This document shows positions 16,250 to 31,428 of a DNA stretch of 64,000 nucleotides, piece after piece. Numbering within the stretch: the stretch's first letter is position 1; every line of letters begins with the position of its first letter. Position numbers and translations under genes: made by a program. Source of the stretch: Flavivirga eckloniae (lineage in GTDB: Bacteria > Bacteroidota > Bacteroidia > Flavobacteriales > Flavobacteriaceae); contig NZ_CP025791.1 of the NCBI RefSeq assembly GCF_002886045.1, positions 1,999,001 through 2,063,000 on the forward strand, written 5' to 3'. The notes below the pieces were generated by a model. The model had not been told where the DNA came from. It did no database searches and saw nothing but the letters and a program-made list of their open reading frames with translations.

Positions 16250-18670
16250 TTACTTATTTTGCATGACGCCCATCAACTCTAAAGAAAAGTTGTCCTTGGC
16301 TTGTATATAAGACGTTTTCGGGATAATTGTAGCACCTACTTTTTTCTTTTCGAAAGATGCTGTCATACCAAAATCAATCTGTTTAAATCCAAGCTCTGTA
16401 GCACGTTTAACTGTTTGGTATAACAATTGTCTATAAACCTGATGTTCGTCTGTGTAATCATAATCCATACCAATAAAGGCTGGCGTATACGTATGTTCTA
16501 AATTTTTATAACAAAACATAACACCTACCGGAATATGTGATCGTCCAACGTTATATTCCTTTTTTAAGTAGAGCACTAAAAATTCCCAATTAGGGTGCTT
16601 AGCCATCATAGTAAACAGCTTTTTGGGCAGAGGAAACATGTTTAGAGCGAGATTGTTTTTATTTACATTGCTATATAGCTCATAAAATTGATCTATTTGT
16701 TTAGGTGTAGACTTGTTGTTATATACTACCTTGAAACGCTCCTCGTAGGGCTGAATATCTTTCTTGAAATGTTTCCTGGAACGTGTAGACAATGCTTCTG
16801 GGTACTCTTCTATTGTTTTCCAATGAAGATCCAGTATTTGACAAGAATCTGGCATTACAGTTTTAATAAATCCTTGTTGGTGGAATAACTGGCTTAGTTT
16901 CTCTTCGTTTTCAAAATCTCTCAACACCACCCAATTTGAATTAAACTGTTGCTCTAACTCTTCAACTTTATCCAACATCTGCTTTATTGCCAATTCCCAA
17001 TATGGGTGCGACTTATCTAAATACAGGTGTTCTCCCTCTGTAAAAGGCGACCCCATACCTAGCACCTTTGAGGTAAGGTAATAGGGATCTTCTTTTCGTA
17101 TTTCCTCTAATTTAATTGAAACAGAAATCGGGGCAAGCATATCTTCTTTCCATAGAGCATATGTAAAAAATGTAGCCAATATGGGTACACTTTTTGCATC
17201 TTTAATAATGATATAGTGAAAGTCCCAATTGTTTTCTGGGCGTTTGTTATTCTTAAAAACATTTTCGAGAAAAAGCAAGCCATCCCAATCGAAAGCTCCT
17301 TTTTTACCCATAAGATTATTCCATTCTTCCTTGCCTATATTCTGAATAGTCTCCTCGTATACTATATGAAAATCGTCAACAATTTTCTTCTTTGGTAACT
17401 CATTTAAAACAGGCATTTTAAACATCTTCCTTACTTGATCAGGTGTAGCATGTGTGTCTTCTAGAGCTTTCTGATAATGATACACCATAGCATCTACTAA
17501 GCCTTTCATTTCTTCAACCTGATTATGTCGTGAAATAGTTACTCTTATCCCAGTATTCTTCACTGGTACTGCTGGAAATATTCCTAAATTCACAAAAAAG
17601 CCTTCCTTCATCAACCTATTTACAAAATTGTATCCGGTAACTGGCATGCCTGTCCCTATGTAAAATACAGGAGAATTATTCTTTTCAACCAAAGGTAAAT
17701 CTGTTTCCTCTAATAATGTATTAAACAAAGTGACACGCTCTAAAAGTTCGTTTTGGAGCATATAAATCTCTGGGGAAAGGTGAATATCGGCTGATGCAAT
17801 GGCAGCAGCTACAGAGGCCGGTTCTAATTGCGCCGAAAAAGTTAAGGGCCCTCCAAAAGTTTTAATTTTATGATGCCTTTTTTTATGGTTACACACCGCT
17901 ACTGCTCCACTAGCTCCAAAAGTTTTACTTAATGTAGTAATTAACAGTACATTTTCAGGCAATTCGTTTAGTTTACTAAGCACATAACCTGTTCCATTTT
18001 TTCCTGACCAACTCATACCATGAACATCATCCAGATATAAATGCAACTGCGGGTATTTATCGCATAACGCCATAAGCTCTCCCAAAGGAGCAACATCGCC
18101 ATACATGGAATACACACCATCTGCCATATACCAAATCCGCTTACATTTAGTTGATAGTTTTTTAATCTTATCTTCCAACATATCAAGATTATTGTGCCTG
18201 ATCATCTCTACAGGCACACTACGAGTTTTAAGCATATTTGCTGCACTTTGCACAGTCCAATGCACCTGATGATCTAGAATTATAGCATCTCCGTCTTCAA
18301 CAGCGCTGGGAATAACCCCAATATGCCCGAGGGTACTATTTTTTGTTATAATAGTGGGTGCATTAAATAATTCGGTAATCTTTTCTTCAAGTTTACGGTA
18401 TAATGGATGTGAAATATAGGCTTTTGAAAGCGGAAACTGTGTTCCGTACTTATCAATAGCATTCATTGCAGCTCCCTTTAAACGCTTATCTTGCTCCAAA
18501 CCTAAGTATCCGGTTGTTCCAAAATGAAAAAGATCTTTTTGTTTAACTCTTATTTTTCTTCCTGTAAAGCTGTCTCCTTCTGCATATAAATGCAGTACTC
18601 CCTGCTCTTTAGCATCTGTAAAAACCTCATTCACAGTGTCTAGAAAATTATTGTGTTTAATTTTTGCCAT
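16250..18670 (-). CDS. Alpha-oxoamine-synthase-like PLP enzyme fused to BioF2/GNAT-like acyltransferase
   Basis: The N-terminal half (about residues 40-420) is a fold-type I PLP enzyme of the BioF/KBL/serine-palmitoyltransferase group: YLGLEQDKRLKGAAM, IILDHQVHWT, LYLDDVHGMSWSG (Asp and His that hold PLP, near 215) and TTLSKTFGASGA with the Schiff-base Lys near 247. These enzymes usually condense an amino acid with an acyl-CoA or acyl-ACP, releasing CO2. The C-terminal half (about 430-800) looks like the acetyltransferase_6/BioF2-like GNAT fold: STRSRKHFKKDIQPYEERF, and CYKNLEHTYTPAFIGMDYDY. A condensation followed by N- or O-acylation, for example of a sphingoid or sulfonolipid-like base, is a reasonable guess and no more. 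It is monocistronic. It has no signal peptide, so it should be cytoplasmic. Confidence 0.75.
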   Translation of the reverse strand: MAKIKHNNFLDTVNEVFTDAKEQGVLHLYAEGDSFTGRKIRVKQKDLFHFGTTGYLGLEQDKRLKGAAMNAIDKYGTQFPLSKAYISHPLYRKLEEKITELFNAPTIITKNSTLGHIGVIPSAVEDGDAIILDHQVHWTVQSAANMLKTRSVPVEMIRHNNLDMLEDKIKKLSTKCKRIWYMADGVYSMYGDVAPLGELMALCDKYPQLHLYLDDVHGMSWSGKNGTGYVLSKLNELPENVLLITTLSKTFGASGAVAVCNHKKRHHKIKTFGGPLTFSAQLEPASVAAAIASADIHLSPEIYMLQNELLERVTLFNTLLEETDLPLVEKNNSPVFYIGTGMPVTGYNFVNRLMKEGFFVNLGIFPAVPVKNTGIRVTISRHNQVEEMKGLVDAMVYHYQKALEDTHATPDQVRKMFKMPVLNELPKKKIVDDFHIVYEETIQNIGKEEWNNLMGKKGAFDWDGLLFLENVFKNNKRPENNWDFHYIIIKDAKSVPILATFFTYALWKEDMLAPISVSIKLEEIRKEDPYYLTSKVLGMGSPFTEGEHLYLDKSHPYWELAIKQMLDKVEELEQQFNSNWVVLRDFENEEKLSQLFHQQGFIKTVMPDSCQILDLHWKTIEEYPEALSTRSRKHFKKDIQPYEERFKVVYNNKSTPKQIDQFYELYSNVNKNNLALNMFPLPKKLFTMMAKHPNWEFLVLYLKKEYNVGRSHIPVGVMFCYKNLEHTYTPAFIGMDYDYTDEHQVYRQLLYQTVKRATELGFKQIDFGMTASFEKKKVGATIIPKTSYIQAKDNFSLELMGVMQNK

Positions 18671-19210
18671 TTTGAAATTTGTTAGTAGTTAGTAATGATT
18701 TATAGAGGGGCTAGTCTAACTATAAAAAATATGTATGAACATAAAGCTATGAAAATTCAGCGATCAAATCTCATAACAATTCTCATGTCTCAATAAAAAA
18801 TCCCTTTCAGGCAAGTTTTTATCCTTTTAAGACAAGTTTTATACCAATAAAAAGATGCATTTTGAAATAATAAAGAAAAAAACAAAACACCGTAAAAAGC
18901 TTAATTACAAATAATTAACACCTTACAAAGTGAAAACACACACCTCCAAGTTAGGGAAACAAAAAATTAAACACAATATGTATCCAAATTATACTTGCGG
19001 TATCAAAAAGTACGGTTTTACCCCAGTTACATTAAAATAATTGTAATTATATTTGTTTTGTTCTAATATATTTTGTTCTAATTTGTTTCACTTTATAAAA
19101 GACAAATCTCTCCCCTAGTAAATTAAATTGATACAAAAAAGTTAATGACGACGCATGTATTATTAGATTTAAACAAGTAAAATTTTTAAACCCCTAAATT
19201 TTAAAATAAC
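18671..19210. other. Divergent intergenic region with operator copy A
   Basis: These 540 AT-rich bases lie between the minus-strand PLP-enzyme gene and the plus-strand STAS-like genes. They contain the first operator-promoter copy (18800-18854, listed separately) and a TTTG-rich stretch at 19050-19090 that could supply a second, closer promoter for the gene at 19211. I see no open frame of note. Confidence 0.5.
18800..18854 (+). promoter_or_regulatory. Tandem 21-bp direct-repeat operator, copy A
   Basis: ATCC at 18800 is followed by AGGCAAGTTTTTATCC and then AAGACAAGTTTTATACC: two full 21-bp units plus part of a third. The CAAGTTTT cores start at 18812 and 18833. The -7 position (18847-18854) reads ATAAAAAG, which does not match TAnnTTTG, so this copy may be a weak promoter or an operator only. 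It points at the STAS-like/AraC gene cluster beginning at 19211, about 355 bases away. Confidence 0.7.
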
Positions 19211-19588
19211 TTGATAGACTATATAGAAAATGAGTATGCAAAATACTGGATTGAAAAAAACATTCTTTATTTTGTTTATAAAGATGGTCTTTCTATTGAT
19301 TTATCTATAGCTATAAAAGTTGTAGAAGACCGGCTTTTTTTGCAACAAGGAGAGGCCTTTTTAATTCTTTGTGATATGAGAGGAATAAAAAGTATAAACA
19401 AAAGCGCGAGAAATTATTTAGCTGTAGAAGGCTCCGTGCTAATTAAGGCAGTTGCCCTATTAATTAACACCCCATTAACTAACGCGATATCTGGTTTTTA
19501 TATCAAGACGAGCAACCCTACTATTGTAACTAAAGCATTTACTGAAAAAGAAGATGCTCTAAAATTTTTAAATTCGGAAAACCCCTAA
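19211..19588 (+). CDS. Small STAS/SpoIIAA-like protein, tandem copy 1
   Basis: This is a 125-residue soluble protein without a signal peptide. An alternating beta/alpha pattern (KYWIEKNILYFVYKDG, AFLILCDMRGIKSINKSAR, AVEGSVLIKAVALLINTP, FTEKEDALKFLN) resembles the STAS/SpoIIAA-like proteins common in Bacteroidota (I think annotated as DUF7793 or STAS/SEC14). The fold is inferred from pattern only. The start must be TTG 19211, because an in-frame stop lies six bases upstream of it and the first ATG would remove half the protein. Directly downstream is a paralog with the same TTG start and a matching 'acccctaaattt' stretch before it. Position next to PAS-AraC genes suggests a sensing or partner-switch role. 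Confidence 0.7.
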   Translation: MIDYIENEYAKYWIEKNILYFVYKDGLSIDLSIAIKVVEDRLFLQQGEAFLILCDMRGIKSINKSARNYLAVEGSVLIKAVALLINTPLTNAISGFYIKTSNPTIVTKAFTEKEDALKFLNSENP

Positions 19589-19601
19589 ATTTATAATAGT
19601 T

Positions 19602-19985
19602 TTGATTGATCATATAGAAAATAAATTTGTTAAATATTGGATTGAAGACGACATTCTTTATACTGTTTATAAGGACGGGGCTTCAATAGATTTATCCGGA
19701 GCGATAAAAATCGTAAAAGATCGGCTTTTTTTACAGCAAGGAAAAGACTTCCTAATCTATTGCGATTTGAGAGGCGTTAAAAGTGTAAACAAAAGCGCAA
19801 GAAATTATTTTGCCTTAGAAGGTTCTGTTCTAATTAAAGCCGTTGCTTTATTAGTAAACCCTCCTTTGACCAGTGCCATATCTGGATTTTTTCTTAAAGC
19901 CAATAATCCCGCTTTTAAAATTCAAATATTTACAGAAAAAGAGGATGCCATTGAATTCTTAAATAATATAAAGACAATTGATTAA
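19602..19985 (+). CDS. Small STAS/SpoIIAA-like protein, tandem copy 2
   Basis: This 127-residue paralog of the preceding gene is colinear with it from end to end and clearly more than half identical (for example RLFLQQGKDFLIYCDLRGVKS against RLFLQQGEAFLILCDMRGIKS). It also starts at TTG, 13 bases after the stop of copy 1, so the pair is probably one transcript. Conserved features in both copies are the DxRGxKSxNKSARNY segment and the EGSVLIKAVALL helix. There is no transmembrane segment or DNA-binding motif. The function is unknown; the tandem arrangement mirrors the tandem AraC pair directly downstream. Confidence 0.7.
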   Translation: MIDHIENKFVKYWIEDDILYTVYKDGASIDLSGAIKIVKDRLFLQQGKDFLIYCDLRGVKSVNKSARNYFALEGSVLIKAVALLVNPPLTSAISGFFLKANNPAFKIQIFTEKEDAIEFLNNIKTID

Positions 19986-20097
19986 AACCCCAAAACTCAT
20001 GTATCCTTTACTTTTCAAAAAAAATAATCTTTAATTTTTTCTATTTTTAACCGTATCCAAGTTTCCCTAACATTATACAAATCTAAACTAACTACTT

Positions 20098-21084
20098 ATG
20101 AACGATGATGAGATTAATAAAGAAAGAATCAGGCAAATACACACTATGCTTTTGGAGTTTGCAAGTGGAAATTTTGCTTATAAGATTGAAAGATCTGACT
20201 TGAATGATGATATAGAAGCGCTCACTGCATTAGTTAATATGACCCTTGAAGAAATAAAAGACTCCTTTCTGCACCAGGGGTATGTAAACCTAAATGAAAC
20301 GTACAAGCATCTGGTTCAAATGTTCTTTGTATTAGATATGGAGAACTCCATAGTAACATTTAACTCTCGTGTAAAACAGATGTTACTTTTTAACGACAAT
20401 GAATTACAGGAAAAAGATTTTTCTACATTTCTAACTGAAGATTCTAAACTAGCCTGGAAGGGTTTAAAATCAAAGATAATGCATACAAACATGGATTCTC
20501 ATGAAGAGTTTATTATGCTATCTTTTAAAACGAATCAAAAGTTAATCTTAACAGCTAATTGCCTGGTAAGCAAATTTATAGACCATATTAATCAATCGGA
20601 AAGAATAGTCATTACCTCTATCGAGATCATTAAAAGCAGTAAAGAAAGAGAAATTGAATTACAGAAAATTGTAAATTCTGGAAAGAACAAAAATGAAACG
20701 ATTAAGCCCAGAACGGTCGTTAACAAAAATAAACAGTTAAACCTAAGCTTTTCTGATATAAGAAAAATTAGAAAAGTTCACGATCATATTATAAACAACT
20801 TAGATAAACCACTTTCACCTTTAATAGAACTAGCCCATACTTTTGGCACTAATGAATACAAATTAAAGTATGGATTTAAACAACTATATGGAGAAACCGT
20901 ATTCCGGTTTTTAATTAATGAAAGGTTGAGAAAAGCTTGTGTTTTAATTCAGCATACGGACACATCCATAAAAGAAGTGGCGCATTTAACAGGATTTATT
21001 AGTGCTCCCCATTTTTCTAAAGCTTTTAAAGAAAAATATGGGTTCACACCTAGAGACCTGAGAAGGCAATCCAATGACAATTAA
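20098..21084 (+). CDS. PAS-AraC family transcriptional regulator, tandem copy 1
   Basis: This is a 328-residue cytoplasmic regulator. Residues about 1-50 form a helical, HAMP-like lead (LEFASGNFAYKIERSDLNDDIEAL). Residues about 55-170 look like a PAS sensor (MFFVLDMENSIVTFNSRVKQML, then LILTANCLVSKFID). Residues about 225-325 are an AraC DNA-binding domain with two HTH units (SPLIELAHTFGTNEYKLKYGFKQLYGE and the signature IKEVAHLTGFISAPHFSKAFKEKYGFTPRDLR region). No transmembrane segment is seen, so the signal is internal. It lies between operator copies A and B of the repeated promoter and is the best candidate for the protein that binds them; that is inference. A short promoter-like stretch ending ATACAAATCTAAACTAACT precedes the ATG and is repeated before copy 2. 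Confidence 0.88.
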   Translation: MNDDEINKERIRQIHTMLLEFASGNFAYKIERSDLNDDIEALTALVNMTLEEIKDSFLHQGYVNLNETYKHLVQMFFVLDMENSIVTFNSRVKQMLLFNDNELQEKDFSTFLTEDSKLAWKGLKSKIMHTNMDSHEEFIMLSFKTNQKLILTANCLVSKFIDHINQSERIVITSIEIIKSSKEREIELQKIVNSGKNKNETIKPRTVVNKNKQLNLSFSDIRKIRKVHDHIINNLDKPLSPLIELAHTFGTNEYKLKYGFKQLYGETVFRFLINERLRKACVLIQHTDTSIKEVAHLTGFISAPHFSKAFKEKYGFTPRDLRRQSNDN

Positions 21085-21205
21085 CCAGTTATAAAAACAG
21101 GATTTACAACCCCTTGTGTCTTTTTGAATAAAATAATCTTTAGTTTTTTCTGTTTATATTTATATTAAGTCTCTCAAATATTAACAAATCTAAACTTACT
21201 TATTT

Positions 21206-22198
21206 ATGAACGATGATGAGATTAATAAAGAAAGAATTAAGCAAATACACACTATGCTTTTAGAGTTTGCTAGTGGGAATTTTGCTTACAAACTTGAACG
21301 ATCAGACTTAAATGATGATATTGAAGCGCTTACCGCACTTGTTAATATGACTTTTGAGGAAATTAAAGGTTCTTTTCTGCATCAAGGCTATGTAAATCTA
21401 AATGAAACATATAAGCATTTGGTGCAAATGTTCTTTGTTCTGGATACTGAAGGCACTATTGTTGCCTTTAATTCCAGAATAAAACAAATGTTGTTTTTTG
21501 ACGATGATGAATTACAGGGAGAATCTTTTTCTAAATTTCTAACTAAAGATTCTAAATTAGCCTGGGAAGAACTAAAATCTAAAATAGCTCACACAAATCT
21601 AGACTCGTACGAAGAGTTTATTGTGCTATCTTTTAAAACCAAACAAAAACTAATTTTAATGACTAATTGTTTGGTTAGTAAATTCGTAGACCACATCCAT
21701 CAATCTGAAAGAATTGTTATAACCTCTATCGAAATTATTAAAAGTAGCCAAGAAAGAGAAAACAAACTGCAGAAAATAATAAACTCTGCTAAGGACAAAA
21801 ATAAGATGGCTATCCCTGATTTATCAAACACAAAAAGTAAACAACTCAACCTTAGCTTTTCCGACATAAGAAAAATTCGAAAAGTTCATGATCATATAAT
21901 AAACAACTTAGACAAACCTCTTTCTCCACTAATAGAATTAGCACATACCTTTGGAACTAATGAATACAAATTAAAGTATGGTTTTAAACAATTGTATGGA
22001 GAAACTGTTTTTCGATTTTTAATTAACGAAAGGTTGAGAAAGGCCAGTCTTTTAATTCAACATACAGACACCTCAATAAAAGAAGTAGCGCATCTTACTG
22101 GGTTTGTTAGTGCCCCTCACTTTTCTAAAGCCTTTAAGGAAAAATATGGTTTTACACCAAGGGATCTGAGAAAACAAACCAATAAAAATCAGCCGTAA
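21206..22198 (+). CDS. PAS-AraC family transcriptional regulator, tandem copy 2
   Basis: This 330-residue paralog of the preceding gene has the same domain order. The DNA-binding halves are almost identical (the stretch from NLSFSDIRKIRKVHD to the end differs at only a few positions), while the PAS parts and the linker near residues 195-215 differ more. Two regulators that read the same DNA sites but sense different inputs, or that form heterodimers, would fit this pattern. The upstream 60 bases repeat those of copy 1 (AAAATAATCTTTA, then ACAAATCTAAACT), so gene and promoter were duplicated together. A 10-bp stem terminator follows at 22240-22274. Confidence 0.88.
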   Translation: MNDDEINKERIKQIHTMLLEFASGNFAYKLERSDLNDDIEALTALVNMTFEEIKGSFLHQGYVNLNETYKHLVQMFFVLDTEGTIVAFNSRIKQMLFFDDDELQGESFSKFLTKDSKLAWEELKSKIAHTNLDSYEEFIVLSFKTKQKLILMTNCLVSKFVDHIHQSERIVITSIEIIKSSQERENKLQKIINSAKDKNKMAIPDLSNTKSKQLNLSFSDIRKIRKVHDHIINNLDKPLSPLIELAHTFGTNEYKLKYGFKQLYGETVFRFLINERLRKASLLIQHTDTSIKEVAHLTGFVSAPHFSKAFKEKYGFTPRDLRKQTNKNQP

Positions 22199-22239
22199 TC
22201 AAGTAAAAAAAGAGCTGGCACAAATACAATGAAGTATTG

Positions 22240-22274
22240 ACCAAGCATCGAAAGTTATATTCTTGATGCTTGGT
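22240..22274 (+). terminator. Rho-independent terminator after the second AraC gene
   Basis: The perfect stem ACCAAGCATC/GATGCTTGGT with a 15-base loop is followed by TTCGTTTC. It lies 42 bases after the AraC stop codon and should close the STAS-AraC transcription unit. Confidence 0.7.
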
Positions 22275-22585
22275 TTCGTTTCTACAAACTCAGCGTGATA
22301 TACTTGGTATAACATCTCTTTTAATTTAATATTAACCTTTTTTTAGCAAGACAATTTAATTACGAGATTGTCTGTCGGAGCTTGTCGAGGACTCTTAATA
22401 AATTCATTTTGCTTTAACCTACACTCAACAGACCGAGCGTGACAAGCGAACCACCTTTTGTCTTTTGATTTATCACACAAAAATCTACTATTAAACTCAT
22501 TTTAAGATTCATTTTCAATATATTAATTAAAATTTAGCATGATAATCTCTCAAAATAACTGCTATAATTTCCTTAGCTGCATTAC

Positions 22586-22640
22586 ATCCTTTTCAGACAA
22601 GTTTTAATCCATTTGAGTTAAGTTTTATCCTCGATATTTG
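22586..22640 (+). promoter_or_regulatory. Tandem direct-repeat operator-promoter, copy B
   Basis: ATCC at 22586 and 22607, with CAAGTTTTAATCC (core from 22598) and TAAGTTTTATCC (core from 22619), are spaced exactly 21 bases apart. The -7 element GATATTTG is at 22633-22640. It faces the outer-membrane receptor gene at 22996. An imperfect RNA hairpin follows at 22677-22730. Confidence 0.8.
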
Positions 22641-22676
22641 TTTCATAGTTGTTAGTTAGTTAGTTGTCTTTTCAAC

Positions 22677-22730
22677 TTCGGTTGCGCCCGGTCACCTTTA
22701 TTGGGATTTTGGAGATTGAGCGTAGCTGGA
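22677..22730 (+). repeat. Leader hairpin shared by cassettes B, C and D
   Basis: TTCGGTTGCGCCCGGTC pairs with GATTGAGCGTAGCTGGA across a 20-base loop when G-U pairs are allowed, with one C-A mismatch. The same hairpin stands at nearly the same distance after the promoters of cassette C (25938-25992) and cassette D (26911-26965). It belongs to the dispersed ACTACGCTCA-type repeats of flavobacteria but is fixed here relative to the promoter. In RNA it would lie about 30 bases after the transcription start. Confidence 0.6.
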
Positions 22731-22995
22731 TTTGAAAAGGACACATTTAATGAATAGTCAATTTATAACACCAATTGGTAATCATTCTCTTAGTATTAAC
22801 AAAACAGCTTACTCTTAAGAGCTTAAGCTTAATGTATGAATAAAAAAATACACACTTATACGAATATAAGACAGAAAGCCTAAAAGAAATCTTCAAGGAA
22901 TTCTTTTGGATAGAATGTATCATTTGATAAAAACGGGTTCGAGGAACCTCTTAATATTATAATTGAGCCACATAAGCTAACTAAAATGTAAACGT

Positions 22996-25659
22996 GTGAA
23001 ATATTGTGTTTTTATATTTGCAATTCTTTGGGCAACTGGAACTTTCGCACAAACTAAACCTTTTAAAATTTCTGGAACTTTAACTACCGAAGCCGATAAA
23101 ATGGCTCTAGAAGCCGCCACTGTTTATTTACAACGTGTTCAAGATAGTAGCCTAGTTACTTATACTATTTCAGATAAAAACGGTAAGTTTTCTTTAGAAG
23201 GTAAAATAGCAGACAAACGACTAAACCTTTTTATTTCTTATGTAGGCTATAAAACCCATTTTCAATCTATTAACCTAGACAAAGAATCAACCGATTTGGG
23301 TACGATTAATTTAAAAACAGACCTCGACGCTCTGGATGAAGTCCTTATAAAAGTAACTCCGCCGGTTGTTATAAAAAAAGATACTCTAAAATTTAATGCT
23401 ACATCTTTCAAAACTAGAAAAGATGCCAATGTTGAGGAATTATTAAAACAATTGCCCGGGGTTGAAGTTTCCGAGGTAGGAAAGATTACCATAAATGGTA
23501 AAGATGTAGATAACATTTTGGTAAACGGGAAACCCTTTTTTAGTAACGACCCAACCATAACAACCAGGTATTTAAAAAAAGAAATTATTGAAAACGTTGA
23601 AATTACAGATACAAAAACAAAAGCAGAAGCTTTTGCCGGAGACGAGGGTAAAAAAGAAAAAAAAACAATCAACCTTGTTATAAAAGAAGAAAATAACGAC
23701 GGTACTTTTGGACAAATAGCAGCTGGTACTGGAACTAATAAGCGTTACGAACTTGCTGGTATGCTCAATCTTTTTGATAACGACCAACGTATAAGTATAC
23801 TGGCAGGAGGAAATAATGTTAATTCTCCCGGATTTAGTTTTGGAAGAGGGCTTACAAGCGGACAAGGCATTATTACCTCCCAAAACTACGGAGCCAATTA
23901 TGCAGATAAACTGAAAAAGAACAGTGATATTTCTGCTAACTATTTCTTTTCTAATACTCGTACAGAAAATGACAATATAACGAATCGAGAAAACATCCTC
24001 CCCGACTCCAGATATTTTACCAATTCAACTTCAAACTCTTATAGTGAAAACAATAATCACAATGCTAATTTGGGCTTTAATATTGAAATTGACTCTACGC
24101 TTTTAATCAATATACGCCCATCATTTACTCTTACTAATAATAAAATAGAAACATCTACCGGTGAAGTATCCAAAGATGATACGAACACCATAACAAATCA
24201 ATCCGATGTATCCTCATTTTCAGAAACTACAAATAAAAACTTTAACAACTACATGGACATCACAAAACGGATTGGAAAAAAAGGGGCCTATATTAAATTC
24301 AACCTCTCAAATAGACACGAGGCCTCTGAATCTGACAAGTTTATAAATTCCGAAACCTTAATTTTTGGAACAACACCCGAAACCATTAGTCGAAATCAGT
24401 TAACTGATGGCGATAGGAAATCGCAAGGTATAAATACAACCGCATCATTTAGATGGCCACTAAAAGCAAACCTTTTCTTTTTAGATTTTAAATACAACTA
24501 TAGAAATGATAAACAAGACAATATAAATAGCACTTATGATTTTGATGAAAACACACAAAGTTTTACAGTATTTAATAAAGACCTAAGTACAGATTTTGAG
24601 TATAAAAACAAAAGAAGCACCCCCACTTTAAAACTTACTTACAAAAAAGAAAAGTGGTCTATTGGTTCCGAAGTAGGATATGTATTTAGAACCATGCAAA
24701 ATACCGACCTTTTAAGACCAGATTTAAGTCTCACCAGAGATTTTGAAACCGTAGAATTGAGATCGTATCTTCACTATCAATTTAATCCAAAATCGTATTT
24801 ATATGCTAGTTATGGGCTAGATAACATTCCGCCTCAATTATCACAATTACAGCCTTTTCAAGATGTCTCCAACCCTTTAAACACTATAAAGGGAAACCCC
24901 AATTTAAAACCTACAAACACACATAGCTTTTACTTTGGTTATAATACTTTTAACTTTCAAAAACGTAACGGTTTCTTTAGCCATATATATGCCAACTTAA
25001 GCAACAATCAGGTAGTTACTAAAACAACTATTGACGAAAATTTTGTGAGAAATACCAGTTATGACAATGTAGACGGAGGCTATAGTCTGAATGCCAGCGC
25101 AAGCTATAACAAAACCGTAAAAATAGACAGCTTGAAAACACTTAAATATAATGTTGGTCTATCTACTGGAGTAAATAGAACCGTAAACTTTAATAATGAT
25201 GTACAATATGTTTCGGATAATATATCTTTAACGCCTTATGCCGACATCACCTTTACATGGGACAACGTGATGATGGTTGTCCCTAATTATAGGTTATCTT
25301 TTAACAAAACGACATTCGATCTAGACGATTTTGAAAATCAGGAATTTATCAATCATTCAGCAGGGATACAAATAACGACATTCGTACCTAAACGATTTGA
25401 ATGGCAACACAACATTAGCTTTAATTATAACCCAAACGTAGCCGAAGGTTTTCAAAAAAGCGCTTGGTTTTGGAATACAACTTTGGCTTATGATATGTTT
25501 AAAGACCGTGGCACTTTAACTTTGAAGGTCTACGATTTGTTAAATCAAAATACCAATGCCAGACGTATTGCTACCCAAAATTATATCCAAGATTCTCAAA
25601 GCACCGTTCTTAAGCAATACTTCATGTTAAGTTTTAGTTGGAAATTCAACAACTTTTGA
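22996..25659 (+). CDS. TonB-dependent receptor-like outer-membrane beta-barrel protein
   Basis: This 887-residue outer-membrane protein has a signal peptide (ILWATGTFAQ), a carboxypeptidase-regulatory-like beta-sandwich (about 22-110: SGTLTTEADKMALEAATVYLQ), a plug-like domain (about 120-235: NVEELLKQLPGVEVSE, ITINGKDVDNILVNGKPFF) and a long beta-barrel of the OMP_b-brl_3 type ending in YFMLSFSWKFNNF with a terminal aromatic residue. Such proteins import or bind small peptides, metal chelates or glycans, or export material. It is not a SusC, and no SusD is next to it. It starts at GTG 22996; the ATG just upstream is out of frame and followed by a stop. Operator copy B lies about 350 bases upstream, so it probably belongs to the AraC regulon. 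Confidence 0.85.
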   Translation: MKYCVFIFAILWATGTFAQTKPFKISGTLTTEADKMALEAATVYLQRVQDSSLVTYTISDKNGKFSLEGKIADKRLNLFISYVGYKTHFQSINLDKESTDLGTINLKTDLDALDEVLIKVTPPVVIKKDTLKFNATSFKTRKDANVEELLKQLPGVEVSEVGKITINGKDVDNILVNGKPFFSNDPTITTRYLKKEIIENVEITDTKTKAEAFAGDEGKKEKKTINLVIKEENNDGTFGQIAAGTGTNKRYELAGMLNLFDNDQRISILAGGNNVNSPGFSFGRGLTSGQGIITSQNYGANYADKLKKNSDISANYFFSNTRTENDNITNRENILPDSRYFTNSTSNSYSENNNHNANLGFNIEIDSTLLINIRPSFTLTNNKIETSTGEVSKDDTNTITNQSDVSSFSETTNKNFNNYMDITKRIGKKGAYIKFNLSNRHEASESDKFINSETLIFGTTPETISRNQLTDGDRKSQGINTTASFRWPLKANLFFLDFKYNYRNDKQDNINSTYDFDENTQSFTVFNKDLSTDFEYKNKRSTPTLKLTYKKEKWSIGSEVGYVFRTMQNTDLLRPDLSLTRDFETVELRSYLHYQFNPKSYLYASYGLDNIPPQLSQLQPFQDVSNPLNTIKGNPNLKPTNTHSFYFGYNTFNFQKRNGFFSHIYANLSNNQVVTKTTIDENFVRNTSYDNVDGGYSLNASASYNKTVKIDSLKTLKYNVGLSTGVNRTVNFNNDVQYVSDNISLTPYADITFTWDNVMMVVPNYRLSFNKTTFDLDDFENQEFINHSAGIQITTFVPKRFEWQHNISFNYNPNVAEGFQKSAWFWNTTLAYDMFKDRGTLTLKVYDLLNQNTNARRIATQNYIQDSQSTVLKQYFMLSFSWKFNNF

Positions 25660-25738
25660 AGTTAAGTTAACTTGTCATTCAGAACGAAGTGAAGAATCTT
25701 TTGAAATAATTCTAAAATTAAACAAATTGCTACACTTC

Positions 25739-25793
25739 GACTACGCTCAGTGGGCACGACTACGCTCAGTGGGCACGACTACGCTCAGTGGGC
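25739..25793. repeat. Short tandem repeat of a CTACGCTCAGTGGGC unit, three copies
   Basis: The unit CGACTACGCTCAGTGGGCA is repeated three times in a row, inside a block that starts with GTCATTCAGAACGAAGTG and ends with CGCAATGAC. It is a locally expanded version of the dispersed repeats found elsewhere in the window and is noncoding. Confidence 0.7.
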
Positions 25794-25854
25794 GCTACTT
25801 CGCAATGACAATACGTGTTTTTAAGCCTCATATATGTCCAAATTATAATGTAAA

Positions 25855-25909
25855 ATCCTTTTAAGACAAGTTTTAATCCATTTGAGTTAAACTTTATACT
25901 CGATATTTG
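25855..25909 (+). promoter_or_regulatory. Tandem direct-repeat operator-promoter, copy C (orphan)
   Basis: ATCC lies at 25855 and 25876, the CAAGTTTTAATCC core starts at 25867, and the second core TAAACTTTAT starts at 25888. The -7 element GATATTTG is at 25902-25909. The leader hairpin follows at 25938-25992. No intact gene lies downstream; only a 23-codon signal-peptide-like frame at 26121 does. Confidence 0.75.
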
Positions 25910-25937
25910 TAATGGTTAGTAATTTTTGTCTTTTGAC

Positions 25938-25992
25938 TTCGGTTGCGCCCAATCACCATTTATTGGAATTCTACAGATTGAGCGTAGCCGAA
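25938..25992 (+). repeat. Leader hairpin of cassette C
   Basis: TTCGGTTGCGCCCAATC pairs with GATTGAGCGTAGCCGAA; 16 of 17 positions pair when G-U is allowed. Compared with cassettes B and D, several paired positions differ but still pair, which hints that the structure has been kept. Confidence 0.6.
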
Positions 25993-26120
25993 TAAAAGAT
26001 TTATAAATCACAAATTATCTTCTGAAGTTTAAAGTTTTATTTCTTCTCTAAAAACAAATCCAAAGTATTTAAACAGGGTCTAGTTTTATAAATTGTCTTT
26101 AAAAGAAAATTATTAGGTTA

Positions 26121-26192
26121 ATGAGAATTCGATTTAAAAATAGGTATATTTTAACGATAAGCATTTTAATTTTGTTATTTGCCTCCTTATAA
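26121..26192 (+). pseudogene. Possible remnant of an exported protein gene (signal peptide only)
   Basis: This 23-codon frame reads MRIRFKNRYILTISILILLF followed by ASL and a stop. That is a basic start and a hydrophobic core like a signal peptide or membrane anchor, with nothing after it. The sequence right behind the stop (AACTAAAGTCGAAAA) also occurs inside the MITE-like element at 16.04 kb, so a repeat may have replaced the rest of the gene. It lies about 210 bases after promoter C. A chance frame is possible. Confidence 0.25.
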
Positions 26193-26837
26193 ACTAAAGT
26201 CGAAAAGTTATTAAAACTTGTAAGTTTAAATAGGTTTTGACTATCCTCAGGTATAGAAGGTTAATATATTCAAATTAAAACTAAGTCTCAATAAGATGCT
26301 TCGACAAGCTCAGCATGACAAGTAACTTCAATTTGTCTTTCCGATTCGATAATACTTTTCATTTAGTTAGGTTGACAATTGAATAACGTCATGTCAATCC
26401 GAGCTTGTCGAGGATTATACTTATTTATCCTCAAAACAAGCTTTTCTTTAAAACCGTTTAATAATATAACTTGAATCTTGTTTAAAAGTTCAAGATGTCA
26501 CTTCGAGTGAAATTCTGGAAGAATTTAGCACTTCGACTACGCTCAGCGGAGCTATCGAGAAGCTTTTGTTGACGAAAATTTATTGGTTTTCGATACGATC
26601 CCGAAGAAAATCGGGATCACTCAAACTGACATAAATTTTCTTATGCAAGTTTTTCACGTTAATATAATAGGAATAAACCTAATATAAGACATAGATAACC
26701 AGTCAAAATGTTAAAAGCCTGCTATAAACAAATCTCTATTCTTAACCCTTAAAGCAAAGCGATATTTGTTCTTATTTACACATAACAAACACCAATTTCT
26801 AACTTCGTATATGCCAACAATTTGAGCATCATAAGAT

Positions 26838-26892
26838 ATCCCTTTTAGATAAGTTTTAATCCTTTAAAATTAAATCATATCGTCGATATTTG
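26838..26892 (+). promoter_or_regulatory. Tandem direct-repeat operator-promoter, copy D (orphan)
   Basis: ATCC lies at 26838 and 26859, TAAGTTTTAATCC starts at 26850, and the second, weaker core TAAATCATAT starts at 26871. The -7 element GATATTTG is at 26885-26892. The leader hairpin follows at 26911-26965. No gene can be recognised downstream before cassette E. Confidence 0.75.
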
Positions 26893-26910
26893 TTTTGTCT
26901 GATACACAAT

Positions 26911-26965
26911 TTCGGTTGCGCCCGATCACCTTTCATAGGGATTTTGGAGATTGAGCGTAGCTGAA
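26911..26965 (+). repeat. Leader hairpin of cassette D
   Basis: TTCGGTTGCGCCCGATC pairs with GATTGAGCGTAGCTGAA with G-U pairs and one mismatch. It is the same element as in cassettes B and C. Confidence 0.6.
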
Positions 26966-27464
26966 ATTTATATGTAAACCAACCCATTGTATATTTAACG
27001 GACTTTGTCATTCCTGCGCAGGCAGGAATCCACCGAAACACTTGAAAGTATAAAATTAATGTGGACTTAAATAAAAAAAGGTTAATAATATTTATATTGT
27101 TAACAAACAACGATTTAACAATATAAACAAAGCAAAGTATGAATCCATCGACTTCATTCCTTTAGATTTTATTTGTGAAGTATAGAAAACATTAAATGAT
27201 ACATTACCGTATAGAGTGTTGCGTAAACAAGTAGATTCCTGCCTTCGCAGGAATGACAAACAACAAGCTTCTTTTCTAAGTTTTCATAGGATCATTCGTA
27301 CAAATCTATAAACAGTAATGTTTCCTACCAACTACAAACAAGTTTTTATCTTTGTTCTTACATTGAAGCGGTCTTAGTTCTACAACACAGCAATCAATAA
27401 TTAAATCGAATCTTAAATTGACAAAATCGAATAACACTAAATTTAAAACATTATACCTTTTTTA

Positions 27465-27519
27465 ATCCCTCTCAGACAATTTTTACTCCGCTTAAGCAAA
27501 CTCTCATTAGCTAAATTTG
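27465..27519 (+). promoter_or_regulatory. Tandem direct-repeat operator-promoter, copy E
   Basis: ATCC at 27465 (its second copy is changed to CTCC), CAATTTTTACTCC from 27477, a degenerate second core near 27497, and a perfect -7 element TAAATTTG at 27512-27519. This is the best -7 of the eight copies combined with the poorest second core. Downstream is a short region that ends in an 11-bp stem and a T-run, not a coding frame. Confidence 0.75.
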
Positions 27520-27525
27520 TAATTG

Positions 27526-27619
27526 ATTTAAATTTACTTATAATACCCCTCTAAACTGGGTAGTCCGAATTTGTGGTTGTCCTAAAAATCGTTTCTCAAA
27601 TGAACCTACCCAGTTTTTA
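27526..27619 (+). ncRNA. Candidate small RNA from promoter E
   Basis: A transcript starting about 7 bases after the -7 element would run about 95 bases. It would end in the perfect 11-bp pairing of AAACTGGGTAG (27553-27563) with CTACCCAGTTT (27606-27616), followed by TT and A-rich sequence. There is no ATG-started frame of useful size inside. The long loop (42 bases) is unusual for a terminator, so this could also be a remnant of an inverted-repeat element. Confidence 0.35.
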
Positions 27620-27832
27620 AAATATTACTAACCAAAACTTTAAACTTAAAAATCAATCTCTCCTTTTTTATATAATTAAAATACATAAATAAGATAAAAA
27701 CCTACAAGATTTCCAACAGTTCCAGAATCAACCTACAGAAATAAATTAAAAGATTTTTCTTTAAACTTTAAGTATATCTTTTAATTTTTTGAGATACTGA
27801 AACAAGTTCAGTATTTACAGTTTCACCAAGGA

Positions 27833-27887
27833 ATCCCTCTCGGGTAAGTTTTCATCCTTTTAGAATAAGTTTTATTACCGAATTTTA
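27833..27887 (+). promoter_or_regulatory. Tandem direct-repeat operator-promoter, copy F
   Basis: ATCC lies at 27833 and 27854, TAAGTTTTCATCC starts at 27845 and TAAGTTTTATTACC at 27866. The -7 position reads GAATTTTA (27880-27887). It is 41 bases before the ATG of the 204-residue protein gene. Confidence 0.75.
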
Positions 27888-27928
27888 TTCGCTCATTAGA
27901 TGAGGTCACCCCATAATCTAAAAAAGTA

Positions 27929-28543
27929 ATGACACAACGCATATACACACATAAGAAAACAAAAAAGGAATACATCATGTTTGATGATAGAGAGTTTGAA
28001 AAAGAAAATCCCATCAAACAGTATGGGAATGACATTATAGTAAAACAGATGATACTAAATGGCGTACCCAAAGATGAAATGACTGGCAAAAAACCTTTCA
28101 CTTCTAAAAGTCAAGATATATTTAAAAATGCTTATGAGCATTGGTTAAACCTAAAAAAAGATTTTCAAAGAATAAAAGTTCCTAAAAACTTAATTAAACT
28201 TTTAAAAACCAAAAGAAAAAAGGACCAGGAAAAATTACTTAATGGTTATTTTCTACCTCTTGAAACACTCACATCTTTTATATTTAAAGCTTACCATGAG
28301 TTTGGATACACTTTAAGTCAATACGTTTCTGAGTTTTCCCAAAAAGGATATAGATCGGTTGCTAAAATTATCGACTCTGGAGAACACTGGCATTGCTTTC
28401 TTACGACGTCTAATCGTTTAGAAGGAGAAAACCAGGTTCATTACCTGTCCAGTGATTTTGGCATAGACAGATCTGAGCTTATTGAACAAATAAAGTCAAA
28501 TGAACTCGCAAAACTAAATAAGCTACCATATGTTACCCTATAA
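27929..28543 (+). CDS. Unknown protein, 204 residues, in the AraC-type regulon
   Basis: I do not recognise this protein. It is Lys-rich and soluble, with no signal peptide or membrane segment. The N-terminal half is strongly basic (residues about 85-125: LKKDFQRIKVPKNLIKLLKTKRKKDQEKLL). The C-terminal half contains GYRSVAKIIDSGEHWHCFLTTSNRLEGE, and YLSSDFGIDRSELIEQI looks helical. A basic stretch plus an acidic, globular end could mean nucleic-acid binding, but that is a guess. ATG 27929 fits the predicted transcript start of operator copy F; ATG 27977, with AAAAAGGAA before it, is an alternative giving 188 residues. A stem with a T-run follows at 28593-28660. Confidence 0.6.
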   Translation: MTQRIYTHKKTKKEYIMFDDREFEKENPIKQYGNDIIVKQMILNGVPKDEMTGKKPFTSKSQDIFKNAYEHWLNLKKDFQRIKVPKNLIKLLKTKRKKDQEKLLNGYFLPLETLTSFIFKAYHEFGYTLSQYVSEFSQKGYRSVAKIIDSGEHWHCFLTTSNRLEGENQVHYLSSDFGIDRSELIEQIKSNELAKLNKLPYVTL

Positions 28544-28592
28544 GTAGCTTTTGAGTAAAATCAAGAGTTTACTATAAACAATCCCCCAAAAG

Positions 28593-28660
28593 ACCAGAGC
28601 AGCATCCACTTTTCTTAAATTTTAGAATTCTTTTCAAAAACAGTTCGCTCTGGTTTTTTC
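28593..28660 (+). terminator. Possible long-loop terminator after the 204-residue gene
   Basis: ACCAGAGC (28593-28600) pairs with GCTCTGGT (28647-28654), followed by a run of T. The 46-base loop is long for a classic terminator but resembles the structure after promoter E. Confidence 0.45.
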
Positions 28661-28802
28661 TATATATTTTTAACTTTTTATGCTCAACTTATAATAGTCA
28701 CTCTTTGGGCTTTTAGTTCACACAAATAAGCACCCAAAAAAACTTCAAAAGAGCTATCAATTGATATTTATTAAAATTTACTTAAGCCACACCTTTTCAA
28801 AA

Positions 28803-28857
28803 ATCCGTATCAGGCAAGTTTTTATCCTCCACAAACAATTCCTATTATGTAACTTTA
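28803..28857 (+). promoter_or_regulatory. Tandem direct-repeat operator-promoter, copy G
   Basis: ATCC lies at 28803 and 28824, the CAAGTTTTTATCC core starts at 28815, and a degenerate second core CAATTCCTAT starts at 28836. The -7 position reads TAACTTTA (28850-28857), one base from TAnnTTTG. It faces the first DUF6520-like gene at 29043. Confidence 0.75.
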
Positions 28858-28992
28858 GTCATATCTCAATAAAGGTAATTGAATAAATATAATTTCTTCT
28901 TTTCCATTGCTATAAAGAACTTTATTCAAACCCTGAAAATGTTTTAGCTTAAATGCTCAAAATGTTCTTACACTACTATCCCAGGAAGAAGG

Positions 28993-29042
28993 CCGAAAAC
29001 CTGTACAATAAAGTAAGCCATTAATGTTTAAATATCCGTATT
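28993..29042 (+). promoter_or_regulatory. Conserved 48-base leader before DUF6520-like gene 1
   Basis: The motif GAAAACCTGTA, then an AGTA/GAGTA element and CATTAAT with a TTTAAATAT tail, stands at a fixed distance from the start. The GAAAACC core begins 48, 48 and 49 bases before the start codons at 29043, 31429 and 32230. It could be an RNA control element, a protein site, or simply duplicated sequence. Confidence 0.55.
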
Positions 29043-29327
29043 ATGAAATCTATTTTTTTTAAATTCGCTTTACCTGTTTTTGCTTTAATTATTGCTATCA
29101 CTACTTCACTTGCTTTTGCACCAAATGTATCTGAAGAGGCTCCCATCGATGTTTATTATAAAGATAAAGACACTGATGAATGTATATGCGTAACTATTGA
29201 TGACTCATTCATACCTAATTGTAATGTTATAAATACAGGCCCTGTATGTACTATATTTGTTTTTGGACAAGGTGCGGCATTCCTTTTTGCAGACGCTAAT
29301 TGCACTTTACATTTAAGAAAACCTTAA
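29043..29327 (+). CDS. Exported Cys-containing DUF6520-like peptide 1
   Basis: This is a 94-residue secreted peptide. It has the typical DUF6520 N-terminus (KFALPVFALIIAITTSLAFA), which works as a signal sequence and is followed by PNVSEEAP. The mature part of about 65 residues has five Cys (CICVTIDD, PNCNVI, GPVCTIFVFG, ANCTL) and a conserved DVYYKD start. The same spacing of CxxI, NC, VCTxFVFG and late C is seen in the paralogs at 31429 and 32230. Disulfides are likely after export. The biochemical role of DUF6520 proteins is not known to me. It is driven by operator copy G and followed by a strong terminator. Confidence 0.8.
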   Translation: MKSIFFKFALPVFALIIAITTSLAFAPNVSEEAPIDVYYKDKDTDECICVTIDDSFIPNCNVINTGPVCTIFVFGQGAAFLFADANCTLHLRKP

Positions 29328-29336
29328 TGAGTAATT

Positions 29337-29370
29337 AGAAAAAGGAGCCTAAATAATCTCCTTTTTCTTA
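29337..29370 (+). terminator. Terminator after DUF6520-like gene 1
   Basis: AGAAAAAGGAG pairs with CTCCTTTTTCT over a 10-base loop, followed by TT. The stem sequence and the trailing TTAAAACCAACTG match the terminator region after the second DUF6520-like gene, showing that gene, leader and terminator were duplicated as one cassette. Confidence 0.75.
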
Positions 29371-29690
29371 AAACCAACTGTATTTAAAAGTAAAGCCAAT
29401 CACTTATAAACATCATACAAACTTGTATATGACCCTATATCTTCAAATTGTTAATTAAATCCTGGTTTTCCAATTTATAATTCTTCATTTGTTATCAGTT
29501 ATACACATCCACTTCGTTGGTTTTGGCTAATGCCTTTTATAAGCTCCTAAATATTAAAATGCCTACTGAAATTTGCTCTTCATAAACAAATCAAATATTC
29601 ATATCCCTCCCAAGGCGGGATTAGTTCAACTTACAATTTTGACTGCTCTCGATATAAATCGGAATTCTCAAAATTGAGTTTCACTAACAA
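29371..29690. other. Short noncoding stretch before operator copy H
   Basis: These 320 AT-rich bases hold no recognised gene. Small dyads (AATTTTGA, then TCAAAATT, near 29634-29677) occur just before operator copy H. Confidence 0.4.
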
Positions 29691-29745
29691 ATCCCTCTAA
29701 GGCAACTATTTATCCATTTAAAATAAGTTTTATCTCTCATCTTTG
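29691..29745 (+). promoter_or_regulatory. Tandem direct-repeat operator-promoter, copy H
   Basis: ATCC lies at 29691 and 29712, the first core reads CAACTATTTATCC from 29703 and the second TAAGTTTTATC from 29724. The -7 position reads CATCTTTG (29738-29745). The ATG of the MauE/DoxX-like gene is only 27 bases further, so the leader is about 20 bases. Confidence 0.78.
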
Positions 29746-29771
29746 TATTGTCAAATAACAATCATTAATTT

Positions 29772-30227
29772 ATGAAAATTCATAATAGATACAAAAGCAT
29801 TTTATTAGAACTAATTTGTTTTCTATATATCCTCTTATTTGTATATGCAGCCTTAAGCAAATTACTGATTTTTGATACGTTTAAAGCCCAGATTGAACAA
29901 TCCCAAATGCTCACTCATTTTGCAGGCATTATAGTCTGGATTATACCACCCCTAGAAATTCTAATTGCTCTACTAATAATTTTTCCAAGATTTAGGCAGC
30001 TTGGTATGTATGCTGCATTTAATCTCATGGTTATGTTTACTGCCTATATCTTTATTGTTTTAAATTTTAGTGACGACATCCCTTGCTCCTGTGGAGGAAT
30101 TATAGAAAAACTTGGATGGACTGAACATTTAATCTTTAATATCTTTTTTGTGATTTTAGGGTTTATGGGAATACTTTTAATAAACGAAAAAAGAAATCAC
30201 ACACCCCTGAAATACGCCTCTTTATGA
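29772..30227 (+). CDS. MauE/DoxX-like four-helix membrane protein
   Basis: This 151-residue inner-membrane protein has four hydrophobic helices (ICFLYILLFVYAALSKLL; FAGIIVWIIPPLEILIALLI; MYAAFNLMVMFTAYIFIVL; LIFNIFFVILGFMGILLI). Before the last helix it carries DDIPCSCGGIIEKLGWTEHL. The CSCGG motif and the layout match the MauE/DoxX redox-associated family; MauE itself is needed for maturation of disulfide-rich methylamine dehydrogenase. It is flanked by exported Cys peptides, so a role in forming or transferring disulfides to them is a plausible inference. It is controlled by operator H, and its stop codon overlaps the ATG of the next gene (ATGA). Confidence 0.82.
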   Translation: MKIHNRYKSILLELICFLYILLFVYAALSKLLIFDTFKAQIEQSQMLTHFAGIIVWIIPPLEILIALLIIFPRFRQLGMYAAFNLMVMFTAYIFIVLNFSDDIPCSCGGIIEKLGWTEHLIFNIFFVILGFMGILLINEKRNHTPLKYASL

Positions 30228-31321: not shown

Positions 31322-31378
31322 AATTTAAAAAAACAAATACAGAGATATCTGTTAACAAAACTGCAGTCAGGGATAAGA

Positions 31379-31428
31379 CCGAAAACCTGTAAAATAGAGT
31401 AGGTCATTAATTTTTAAATATCTATATT
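31379..31428 (+). promoter_or_regulatory. Conserved leader before DUF6520-like gene 2
   Basis: The GAAAACCTGTA core begins at 31381, 48 bases before the start codon, followed by CATTAATTTTTAAATAT as in the other two leaders. No copy of the 21-bp operator lies upstream, so this gene may be read through from the MauE-like operon. Confidence 0.55.

What the first reader, a model, noticed from the sequence alone, without database searches (positions are those of the whole stretch)
18800..29745. Eight copies of a rigid 55-bp tandem operator-promoter: a local, unnamed regulon
At 18800, 22586, 25855, 26838, 27465, 27833, 28803 and 29691 the same layout occurs. ATCC is followed 12 bases later by a C/T-AAG-TTTT-like core, ATCC and the core recur after 21 bases, and the -7 octamer lies exactly 47 bases after the first ATCC. 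In six copies the second core also starts with a clear AAG/AAA; in copies E and G it is degraded. The -7 octamers are GATATTTG (three times), TAAATTTG, TAACTTTA, CATCTTTG, GAATTTTA and one non-match. All face the plus strand and all lie between 18.8 and 29.8 kb. Direct repeats two helical turns apart and abutting the -33 region are typical of AraC-type activators, and two AraC genes lie inside the cluster. I found no minus-strand or distant copies by eye.
Basis: partly seen in the sequence, partly recalled or inferred. Interest (0 to 1): 0.9.

Follow-up and report, generated by a model that had tools for sequence, protein, structure and literature searches.

The report
AraC-type regulon with noncoding-RNA array
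Eight near-identical gene switches in a marine bacterium (a Flavivirga) are real and belong to a genome-wide set of about 23, probably worked by the regulator encoded beside them; several of them appear to drive small structured RNAs rather than protein genes.

Summary
The eight tandem operator-promoters are real, exactly where stated and far above chance. They are not local: a model of them finds 15 more copies at E<=1e-3 elsewhere in the 5.67-Mb genome, on both strands; 11 of the 15 precede DUF6520, MauE, SusC-type or type-IX-sorted genes. All 12 genomes of the genus carry 8-28 copies; 2 of 87 others carry any. The PAS-AraC protein encoded between sites A and B is very probably the regulator: it occurs in those 12 genomes and, full length, in four distant ones. 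In three of these four the genome's best motif match lies beside the AraC gene; in the fourth, weak matches flank it. New: sites B-E each precede a conserved structured RNA, present in 12/12 genus genomes (B, C, D) or 11/12 (E), without an Rfam family, and absent from nine other genomes searched. Targets are unknown, transcription is unproven and covariation is weak. An alpha-oxoamine-synthase/GNAT gene is the regulator's constant divergent neighbour, which suggests, without proof, a synthase-receptor pair.

The parts
16250..18670 (-). alpha-oxoamine-synthase-like + GNAT fusion, 806 aa; constant divergent neighbour of the regulator
   Evidence: Pfam Aminotran_1_2 + Acetyltransf_6; in 16 of 60 relatives: the 15 with the AraC protein plus G065
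18800..18855 (+). site A: tandem operator without a -7 box; probably autoregulatory
   Evidence: a site at this place also lacks the box in the six genus genomes printed (G001-G005, G008)
19211..19588 (+). DUF7793 protein (first copy)
   Evidence: Pfam PF25056, 5.2e-45
19602..19985 (+). DUF7793 protein (second copy)
   Evidence: Pfam PF25056, 9.3e-44
20098..21084 (+). AraC-type regulator, copy 1
   Evidence: HTH_18 2.8e-19; 85% identical to copy 2
21206..22198 (+). PAS + AraC-type regulator, copy 2
   Evidence: HTH_18 2.2e-19, PAS_4 6.7e-5; co-occurs with the motif
22586..22641 (+). site B operator-promoter
22645..22745 (+). RNA B: conserved hairpin at the start of the leader of the outer-membrane gene
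   Evidence: 12/12 genomes; fold z -3.6
22996..25659 (+). outer-membrane beta-barrel protein
   Evidence: Pfam OMP_b-brl_3 7.4e-28
25855..25910 (+). site C operator-promoter
25914..26002 (+). RNA C: conserved linear 5' end + hairpin
   Evidence: 21 copies in 12/12 genomes; fold z -5.3
26838..26893 (+). site D operator-promoter
26897..26969 (+). RNA D: conserved hairpin
   Evidence: 12/12 genomes; fold z -3.5
27465..27520 (+). site E operator-promoter
27524..27620 (+). RNA E: conserved RNA closed by a terminator-like stem and T run
   Evidence: 11/12 genomes; one compensatory pair; fold z -2.9
27833..27888 (+). site F operator-promoter
27929..28543 (+). 204-aa protein without a Pfam family
   Evidence: no family; aligned with 9 orthologues of the genus, 58-72% identity
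28803..28858 (+). site G operator-promoter
29043..29327 (+). DUF6520 small protein
   Evidence: Pfam PF20130 1.1e-7
29691..29746 (+). site H operator-promoter
29772..30227 (+). MauE-type membrane protein
   Evidence: Pfam PF07291 7.7e-32
30224..31321 (+). 365-aa protein without a Pfam family, next to MauE
   Evidence: no family; at three distant places the MauE ORF continues to 512-531 aa, about the sum of both
31429..31737 (+). DUF6520 small protein
   Evidence: Pfam 9.3e-11
32230..32535 (+). DUF6520 small protein
   Evidence: Pfam 3.7e-10

Best explanation
The repeats are operator-promoters of one regulon. Site A has no -7 box and is probably autoregulatory (inferred). F, G and H serve the 204-aa gene, a DUF6520 gene and the MauE operon. 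B, C, D and E serve conserved structured RNAs: three related hairpin RNAs and one RNA closed by a terminator. Some 15 further sites in the genome serve mostly DUF6520, MauE, SusC-type and type-IX-sorted genes. The RNAs most likely act in trans as regulatory RNAs whose dose is set by several promoters (inferred; no target found).
For: Sites and spacing. Genome-wide set: 23 matches at E<=1e-3, 8 of them these; 9 of 11 DUF6520 genes lie downstream of a site, 5 as the first gene and 4 behind MauE. Regulator: R1 matches in 12/12 genus genomes and 2/87 others; AraC protein in the same 12 plus G018, G028, G031, G059 at 39-43%; the best R1 match of G028, G031 and G018 lies within 632 bases of the AraC gene. 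RNAs: B 12/12, C 21 copies in 12/12, D 12/12, E 11/12 genomes; models R2 and R3 find them in 12 and 11 of 12 genus genomes and 0 of 9 others; six folds z -2.9 to -5.3; plus strand, the promoter strand, the more stable in 43/45; consensus pairs formed in 97.9% of cells; conservation rises at the predicted +1 in C and D. G004 lacks both site E and RNA E.
Against: No transcript or binding data. Covariation of the B/C/D hairpin does not exceed shuffles (339, 146, 193 and 82 of 500 reach it; pairing percentage 8 of 500). B, C and D show no terminator. C copies were recognised by their 5' letters, so their invariance from +1 is partly by construction. R1 matches beside the AraC gene are weak outside G028 (E 0.0096-0.68), and in G059 they are not the best of the genome. 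No convincing target among 21 start regions; one candidate was not conserved. The arm of the B/C/D hairpin resembles a dispersed palindrome.
Confidence: 0.7

Rival explanations
1. The operators are as described, but the B/C/D hairpins are copies of a dispersed REP-like palindrome that sits downstream of duplicated promoters and has no function as RNA.
For: The arm TGAGCGTAGYCGAA has 29 exact copies in the own genome and 9-15 in three other genus genomes; the two further R2 matches of the own genome are such palindromes; covariation is weak.
Against: B, C and D stand at a fixed place after the promoter in 12/12 genomes with conserved linear 5' ends; the pairs with G-U as commonest type favour the promoter strand, 43/45; E is unrelated to the palindrome; the dispersed arm is absent from G028 and G031, so it cannot be judged there.
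Confidence: 0.15
2. The RNAs are cis elements (leaders, attenuators or processing hairpins) of longer transcripts, not independent RNAs.
For: No terminator after B, C or D; B lies in the 351-base leader of the outer-membrane gene.
Against: No plus-strand ORF of 25 aa or more that starts between site C and 27929 exceeds 34 aa; in G002 the next promoter follows site C and site D after 224 and 276 bases; E ends in a terminator before F.
Confidence: 0.25
3. Another AraC-family protein, or a different class of regulator, binds the repeats; the linked AraC genes are only neighbours.
For: The genome has 34 stretches matching the AraC query at E<=1e-3, most over the HTH part only; binding is untested.
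Against: The motif follows this AraC family across genera and to its gene; a second module in G008 with a 43%-identical AraC protein again has sites beside it.
Confidence: 0.1

Closest known systems
AraC/XylS activator on araI1-araI2 half-sites (E. coli; layout recalled, not from a call)
   Same: direct half-sites 21 bp apart, the proximal one at the -33/-35 region, AraC-type HTH regulator
   Different: sensor part is PAS, not a sugar-binding cupin; about 23 copies genome-wide; Bacteroidetes -7 box; binding untested
Bacteroidetes sigma-A promoter TAnnTTTG (PMC7366714 and PMC9723704, passages only)
   Same: -7 box of this consensus, at -12 to -5
   Different: only 12 of 122 sites match all six letters and 73 match five at offset 47; the activator site replaces a clear -33 TTTG
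Trans-acting sRNAs of Bacteroidetes such as GibS (PMC7366714, passages) and Rfp18 (PMC9723704, passages)
   Same: promoter of its own, conserved linear 5' part followed by structure (GibS)
   Different: several related copies under one activator; unrelated in sequence as far as Rfam shows; no target known
Vibrio CqsA-CqsS-Qrr circuit (recalled)
   Same: alpha-oxoamine-synthase-family gene next to a sensor gene; several related RNAs under the circuit
   Different: enzyme scores 73.7 against a cut-off of 428 for the autoinducer-synthase model and carries a GNAT domain; sensor is a one-component AraC protein; no signal known
DUF805b RNA, Rfam RF02914 (for the DUF6520 leader)
   Same: layout CAGG..CC GAAAA CCU..AGAGUAGG in register
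   Different: 19.6-22.1 bits against a gathering score of 35.6

Membership tests
AraC/XylS-activated promoter | direct half-sites about 21 bp apart | tested here: met
AraC/XylS-activated promoter | proximal half-site at the -33/-35 region | tested here: met
   second ATCC falls at -38 to -35 when the octamer is at -12 to -5 (positions)
AraC/XylS-activated promoter | linked regulator with AraC HTH that follows the motif | tested here: met
   G059 weak
AraC/XylS-activated promoter | binding and activation | not testable with these tools
   needs footprint and deletion
Bacteroidetes sigma-A promoter | TAnnTTTG -7 box at fixed place | tested here: met
   85 of 122 sites with 5-6 of 6 letters at offset 47; site A fails
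Bacteroidetes sigma-A promoter | -33 TTTG | tested here: inconclusive
   T-rich at positions 27-29, no clear TTTG
Trans-acting sRNA (RNAs B-E) | own promoter and conserved structure | tested here: met
Trans-acting sRNA (RNAs B-E) | terminator | tested here: inconclusive
   present in E; none seen by reading after B, C, D
Trans-acting sRNA (RNAs B-E) | conserved target pairing | tested here: inconclusive
   no conserved pairing in the start regions looked at; whole genomes not searched
Trans-acting sRNA (RNAs B-E) | expression as a short RNA | not testable with these tools
   needs RNA-seq
REP-like dispersed palindrome (hairpins B/C/D) | dispersed over the genome | tested here: not met
   strong R2 matches only in the cluster; own genome 3 there, others 45.2 and 29.8 bits
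DUF805b RNA (DUF6520 leader pseudoknot) | Rfam gathering score | tested here: not met
   19.6-22.1 against 35.6 bits
CqsA-type autoinducer synthase (gene 16250-18670) | score over the NCBIfam cut-off | tested here: not met
   NF005526 73.7 against 428 bits
CqsA-type autoinducer synthase (gene 16250-18670) | gene next to a sensor gene | tested here: met
   beside DUF7793 and a PAS sensor in G018, G028, G031, G059 and G065
CqsA-type autoinducer synthase (gene 16250-18670) | makes a diffusible signal | not testable with these tools
   needs chemistry

The most novel reading that the evidence does not exclude
The locus is a one-component signalling circuit. The alpha-oxoamine-synthase/GNAT enzyme makes an acylated amino-ketone or lipid signal; the PAS-AraC protein is its intracellular receptor and, on binding it, fires some 20 operator-promoters at once, among them an array of dose-setting regulatory RNAs, partly built from a domesticated repetitive palindrome. 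It would be a flavobacterial, AraC-based counterpart of the Vibrio CqsA-to-Qrr circuit; in another family (G065) the same synthase and DUF7793 sit beside a PAS histidine kinase and a LuxR-type response regulator.
Probability: 0.15. Interest if true: 0.85.

Novelty: new variant of a known kind. Interest (0 to 1): 0.62.

Why it matters
It gives a bounded regulon (operator, spacing rule, likely regulator, target list) in a phylum whose AraC operators are, to my knowledge, little defined, and two candidate RNA families whose promoter, start and regulator are all predicted, so that one RNA-seq experiment with a regulator deletion tests them. DUF6520, MauE and DUF7793 genes, of unknown role here, become parts of one system, and a synthase-receptor pair becomes a concrete hypothesis.

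Tried and rejected
Loose pattern with 2 mismatches over the genome: hits are at background (60+47 against 69+80 for the reversed pattern), so counts rest on model R1.

Target of RNA C in the synthase leader: 9 bases of complementarity in this genome; not seen in the other leaders listed; rejected. Duplex test of five RNA segments against 21 start regions of the window: best z -3.47, not checked for conservation, taken as noise.

Peptide reading of sites C-E: short ORFs of up to 34 aa start there, but the ATG near the start of C is in some copies only; rejected.

204-aa protein: AlphaFold2 mean pLDDT 66.4, no PDB match at E<=0.001; no function assigned.

Rfam over 18.5-33 kb, E<=10: 11 matches, none at its gathering score. 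Papers, held library only: 'DUF6520' 0, 'DUF805b' 0. Searches gave, in their capped listings (6 of 6, 4 of 4, 8 of 28,875, 8 of 765, 8 of 3,491), no title on this system. One search (12 of 620 listed) gave the two papers of which passages were read. ('Flavivirga', 12 of 24 listed): no regulatory work by title.

Cautions. C copies were sorted by a 5' pattern, so the invariance of +1 to +14 in 21/21 is partly by construction; but no printed segment was left over, every one being B, C, D, E or one of 12 F promoters. In D, sorted by its stem, conservation at +1 to +8 is 0.75-0.92 against 0.58-0.67 at -4 to -1; in E the rise is at +2. The output was cut in the middle; G028 and G059 were listed again.
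Full report
Observation. The eight sites lie at the stated coordinates on the plus strand. The first ATCC is present in 8 of 8, the core starts 12 bases after it, the second half-site lies 21 bases on, and the octamer starts at offset 47. With a 56-bp matrix made from them the eight score 50.2-68.7 and the next places in the window 17.8 and 10.5.

Not local. A sequence-only profile of the eight (R1; its E-values are rough) finds 23 matches at E<=1e-3 in the 5,665,358-bp genome: the eight and 15 others, seven on the plus and eight on the minus strand. Downstream of the 15: a DUF6520 gene first in 4; MauE first in 2; a SusC-type receptor in 3; a protein with a type-IX sorting tail in 2 (one of them 604 bases away); a phosphate transporter 463 bases away in 1; proteins without a Pfam family in 2; only a very short ORF in 1. 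Of 11 DUF6520 genes, 9 lie downstream of a site, 5 as first gene and 4 behind MauE; 2 do not. So 'local' is wrong, and so is 'spread at random'.

Spread and regulator. Among 99 genomes, own included, R1 matches at E<=1e-3 occur in all 12 of the genus (8-28 each, 183 in all) and in 2 of 87 others (3 matches). Eight named records with the AraC gene at 76-83% identity are five Flavivirga and three uncultured Flavobacteriaceae; that the window is a Flavivirga is an inference, its genome being unnamed. The AraC protein is found at E<=1e-20 in the same 12, nearly full length at 39-43% in G018, G028, G031 and G059, and over the HTH part in G087 and G095. The best R1 match of G028 (E 2.7e-4) lies 43 bases after the matched AraC stretch; that of G031 (E 0.0096) 632 bases upstream of it, with another (0.075) 31 bases behind; that of G018 (E 0.066) 575 bases upstream. 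In G059 the best match is elsewhere, and weaker ones (0.244 and 0.68) flank the AraC gene. The 43-bp matrix over 20 kb agrees for G028, G031 and G018; in G059 its best place (19.4) lies away from the AraC gene, with 17.4 and 11.4 beside it; the place after AraC in G018 scores 2.5 only.

Locus. In G018, G028, G031 and G059 the order is synthase (minus), DUF7793, AraC, MauE, a small gene, then SusD and SusC (minus). The small gene matches DUF6520 by BLAST in G028 and G059; in G018 and G031 it is alike only by eye. In Flavivirga the block B-OMP-C-D-E-F-204aa stands between AraC and MauE; in G007 it is inverted, and in G008 it is on another contig. The genus genomes show one to three AraC matches.

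Promoter rule. Sites found by the 43-bp operator part alone in the window and 29 fetched loci: 122 distinct; TAnnTTTG (at least 5 of 6) at offset 47 in 85, at any other offset in at most 8. With the box at -12 to -5 (PMC9723704, passage) the start falls on position 60 of the site.

RNAs. No plus-strand ORF that starts between site C and 27929 exceeds 34 aa (minimum 25 aa). Reading what follows each site in 12 genomes shows four conserved RNAs: B 12/12, C 21 copies in 12/12, D 12/12, E 11/12; G004 lacks both site E and RNA E. B, C and D share a 15-pair hairpin in which three pairs have G-U as the commonest type, one of them in 45 of 45. Six single folds have z -2.9 to -5.3. The plus strand is the more stable in 43 of 45. 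Pairing holds in 97.9% of cells, against at most 44.6% for slid partners, but covariation does not exceed shuffles. Lower arms pair at -8.88 (B), -4.97 (C) and -2.68 (D) kcal/mol against shuffled -3.88, -3.07 and -1.65 (SD 0.58, 0.34, 0.49): strong for B and C, weak for D; C 5' arms pair as well with B 3' arms (-6.08), so that exchange does not tell B and C apart. R2 and R3 find the RNAs in 12 and 11 of 12 genus genomes and in 0 of 9 others. Weaker R2 matches are complementary-strand echoes of the same hairpins, two dispersed palindromes in the own genome, and places in G004, G007, G010 and G011 that were not examined.

Origin of the hairpin. The arm TGAGCGTAGYCGAA has 29 exact copies in the own genome (one of them RNA C), 9-15 in three other genus genomes and none in G028 and G031. 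The RNA hairpins look like such a palindrome whose left arm changed by transitions to G-U pairing (inference).

Synthase. The 806-aa fusion is in 16 of 60 relatives: the 15 of these that have the AraC protein, and G065; by genus 4 of 4 against 1 of 41, Fisher p 3.4e-5. G059, outside the 60, has it beside AraC too. In G065 its neighbours are DUF7793, a PAS-HisKA_3 kinase and a LuxR-type response regulator; the kinase's N-terminal half resembles that of the AraC protein (62.8 bits, without composition correction). Nearest solved structures are 8-amino-7-oxononanoate synthases, then 2-amino-3-ketobutyrate CoA ligase and serine palmitoyltransferases; no NCBIfam cut-off is reached. A signal role is a hypothesis.

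Verdict. Observation confirmed; the AraC reading supported by comparison; locality wrong; the array of conserved RNAs behind sites B-E is the unexpected part. Nothing was shown at the bench.

Noticed in passing
28982-29019 and 31368-31409; L009, L015, L042, L043, L063, L161, L162, L224 and others: Leaders of DUF6520 genes carry an H-type pseudoknot (CAGG..GACC-GAAAA-CCTG..AGAGTA-GGTC), clear in 9 of 11 own DUF6520 genes. In 27 distinct copies the second stem is fully paired in 26 and varies in step (GACC/GGTC, GATC/GATC, GGCT/AGCC; 0 of 2000 shuffles as good, counted with one chance row and one double). Rfam DUF805b matches below threshold.
   Followed up: partly
25738-25803 and 26534-26561; L222, L223: Dispersed palindrome CTTCGAYTACGCTCAG..CTGAGCGTAGYCGAAG, single and in short tandem.
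   Followed up: partly
G000:C1:4005320-4005377 (L061): A strong distant site (49.6 bits) followed by no near ORF but by a terminator-like stretch that by eye resembles the one after the 204-aa gene; perhaps the remnant of a lost copy.
   Followed up: no
L238:5408-10242 (G065): Synthase + DUF7793 beside a PAS histidine kinase and LuxR-type response regulator: same input genes, other output.
   Followed up: partly
G008:C70:138000-157900 (L189): A second, paralogous module (AraC 43%, MauE 48%, small genes, SusD/SusC) with its own tandem sites.
   Followed up: no
G006:C13:34796-35775: A further AraC copy broken into two pieces; left as found.
   Followed up: no
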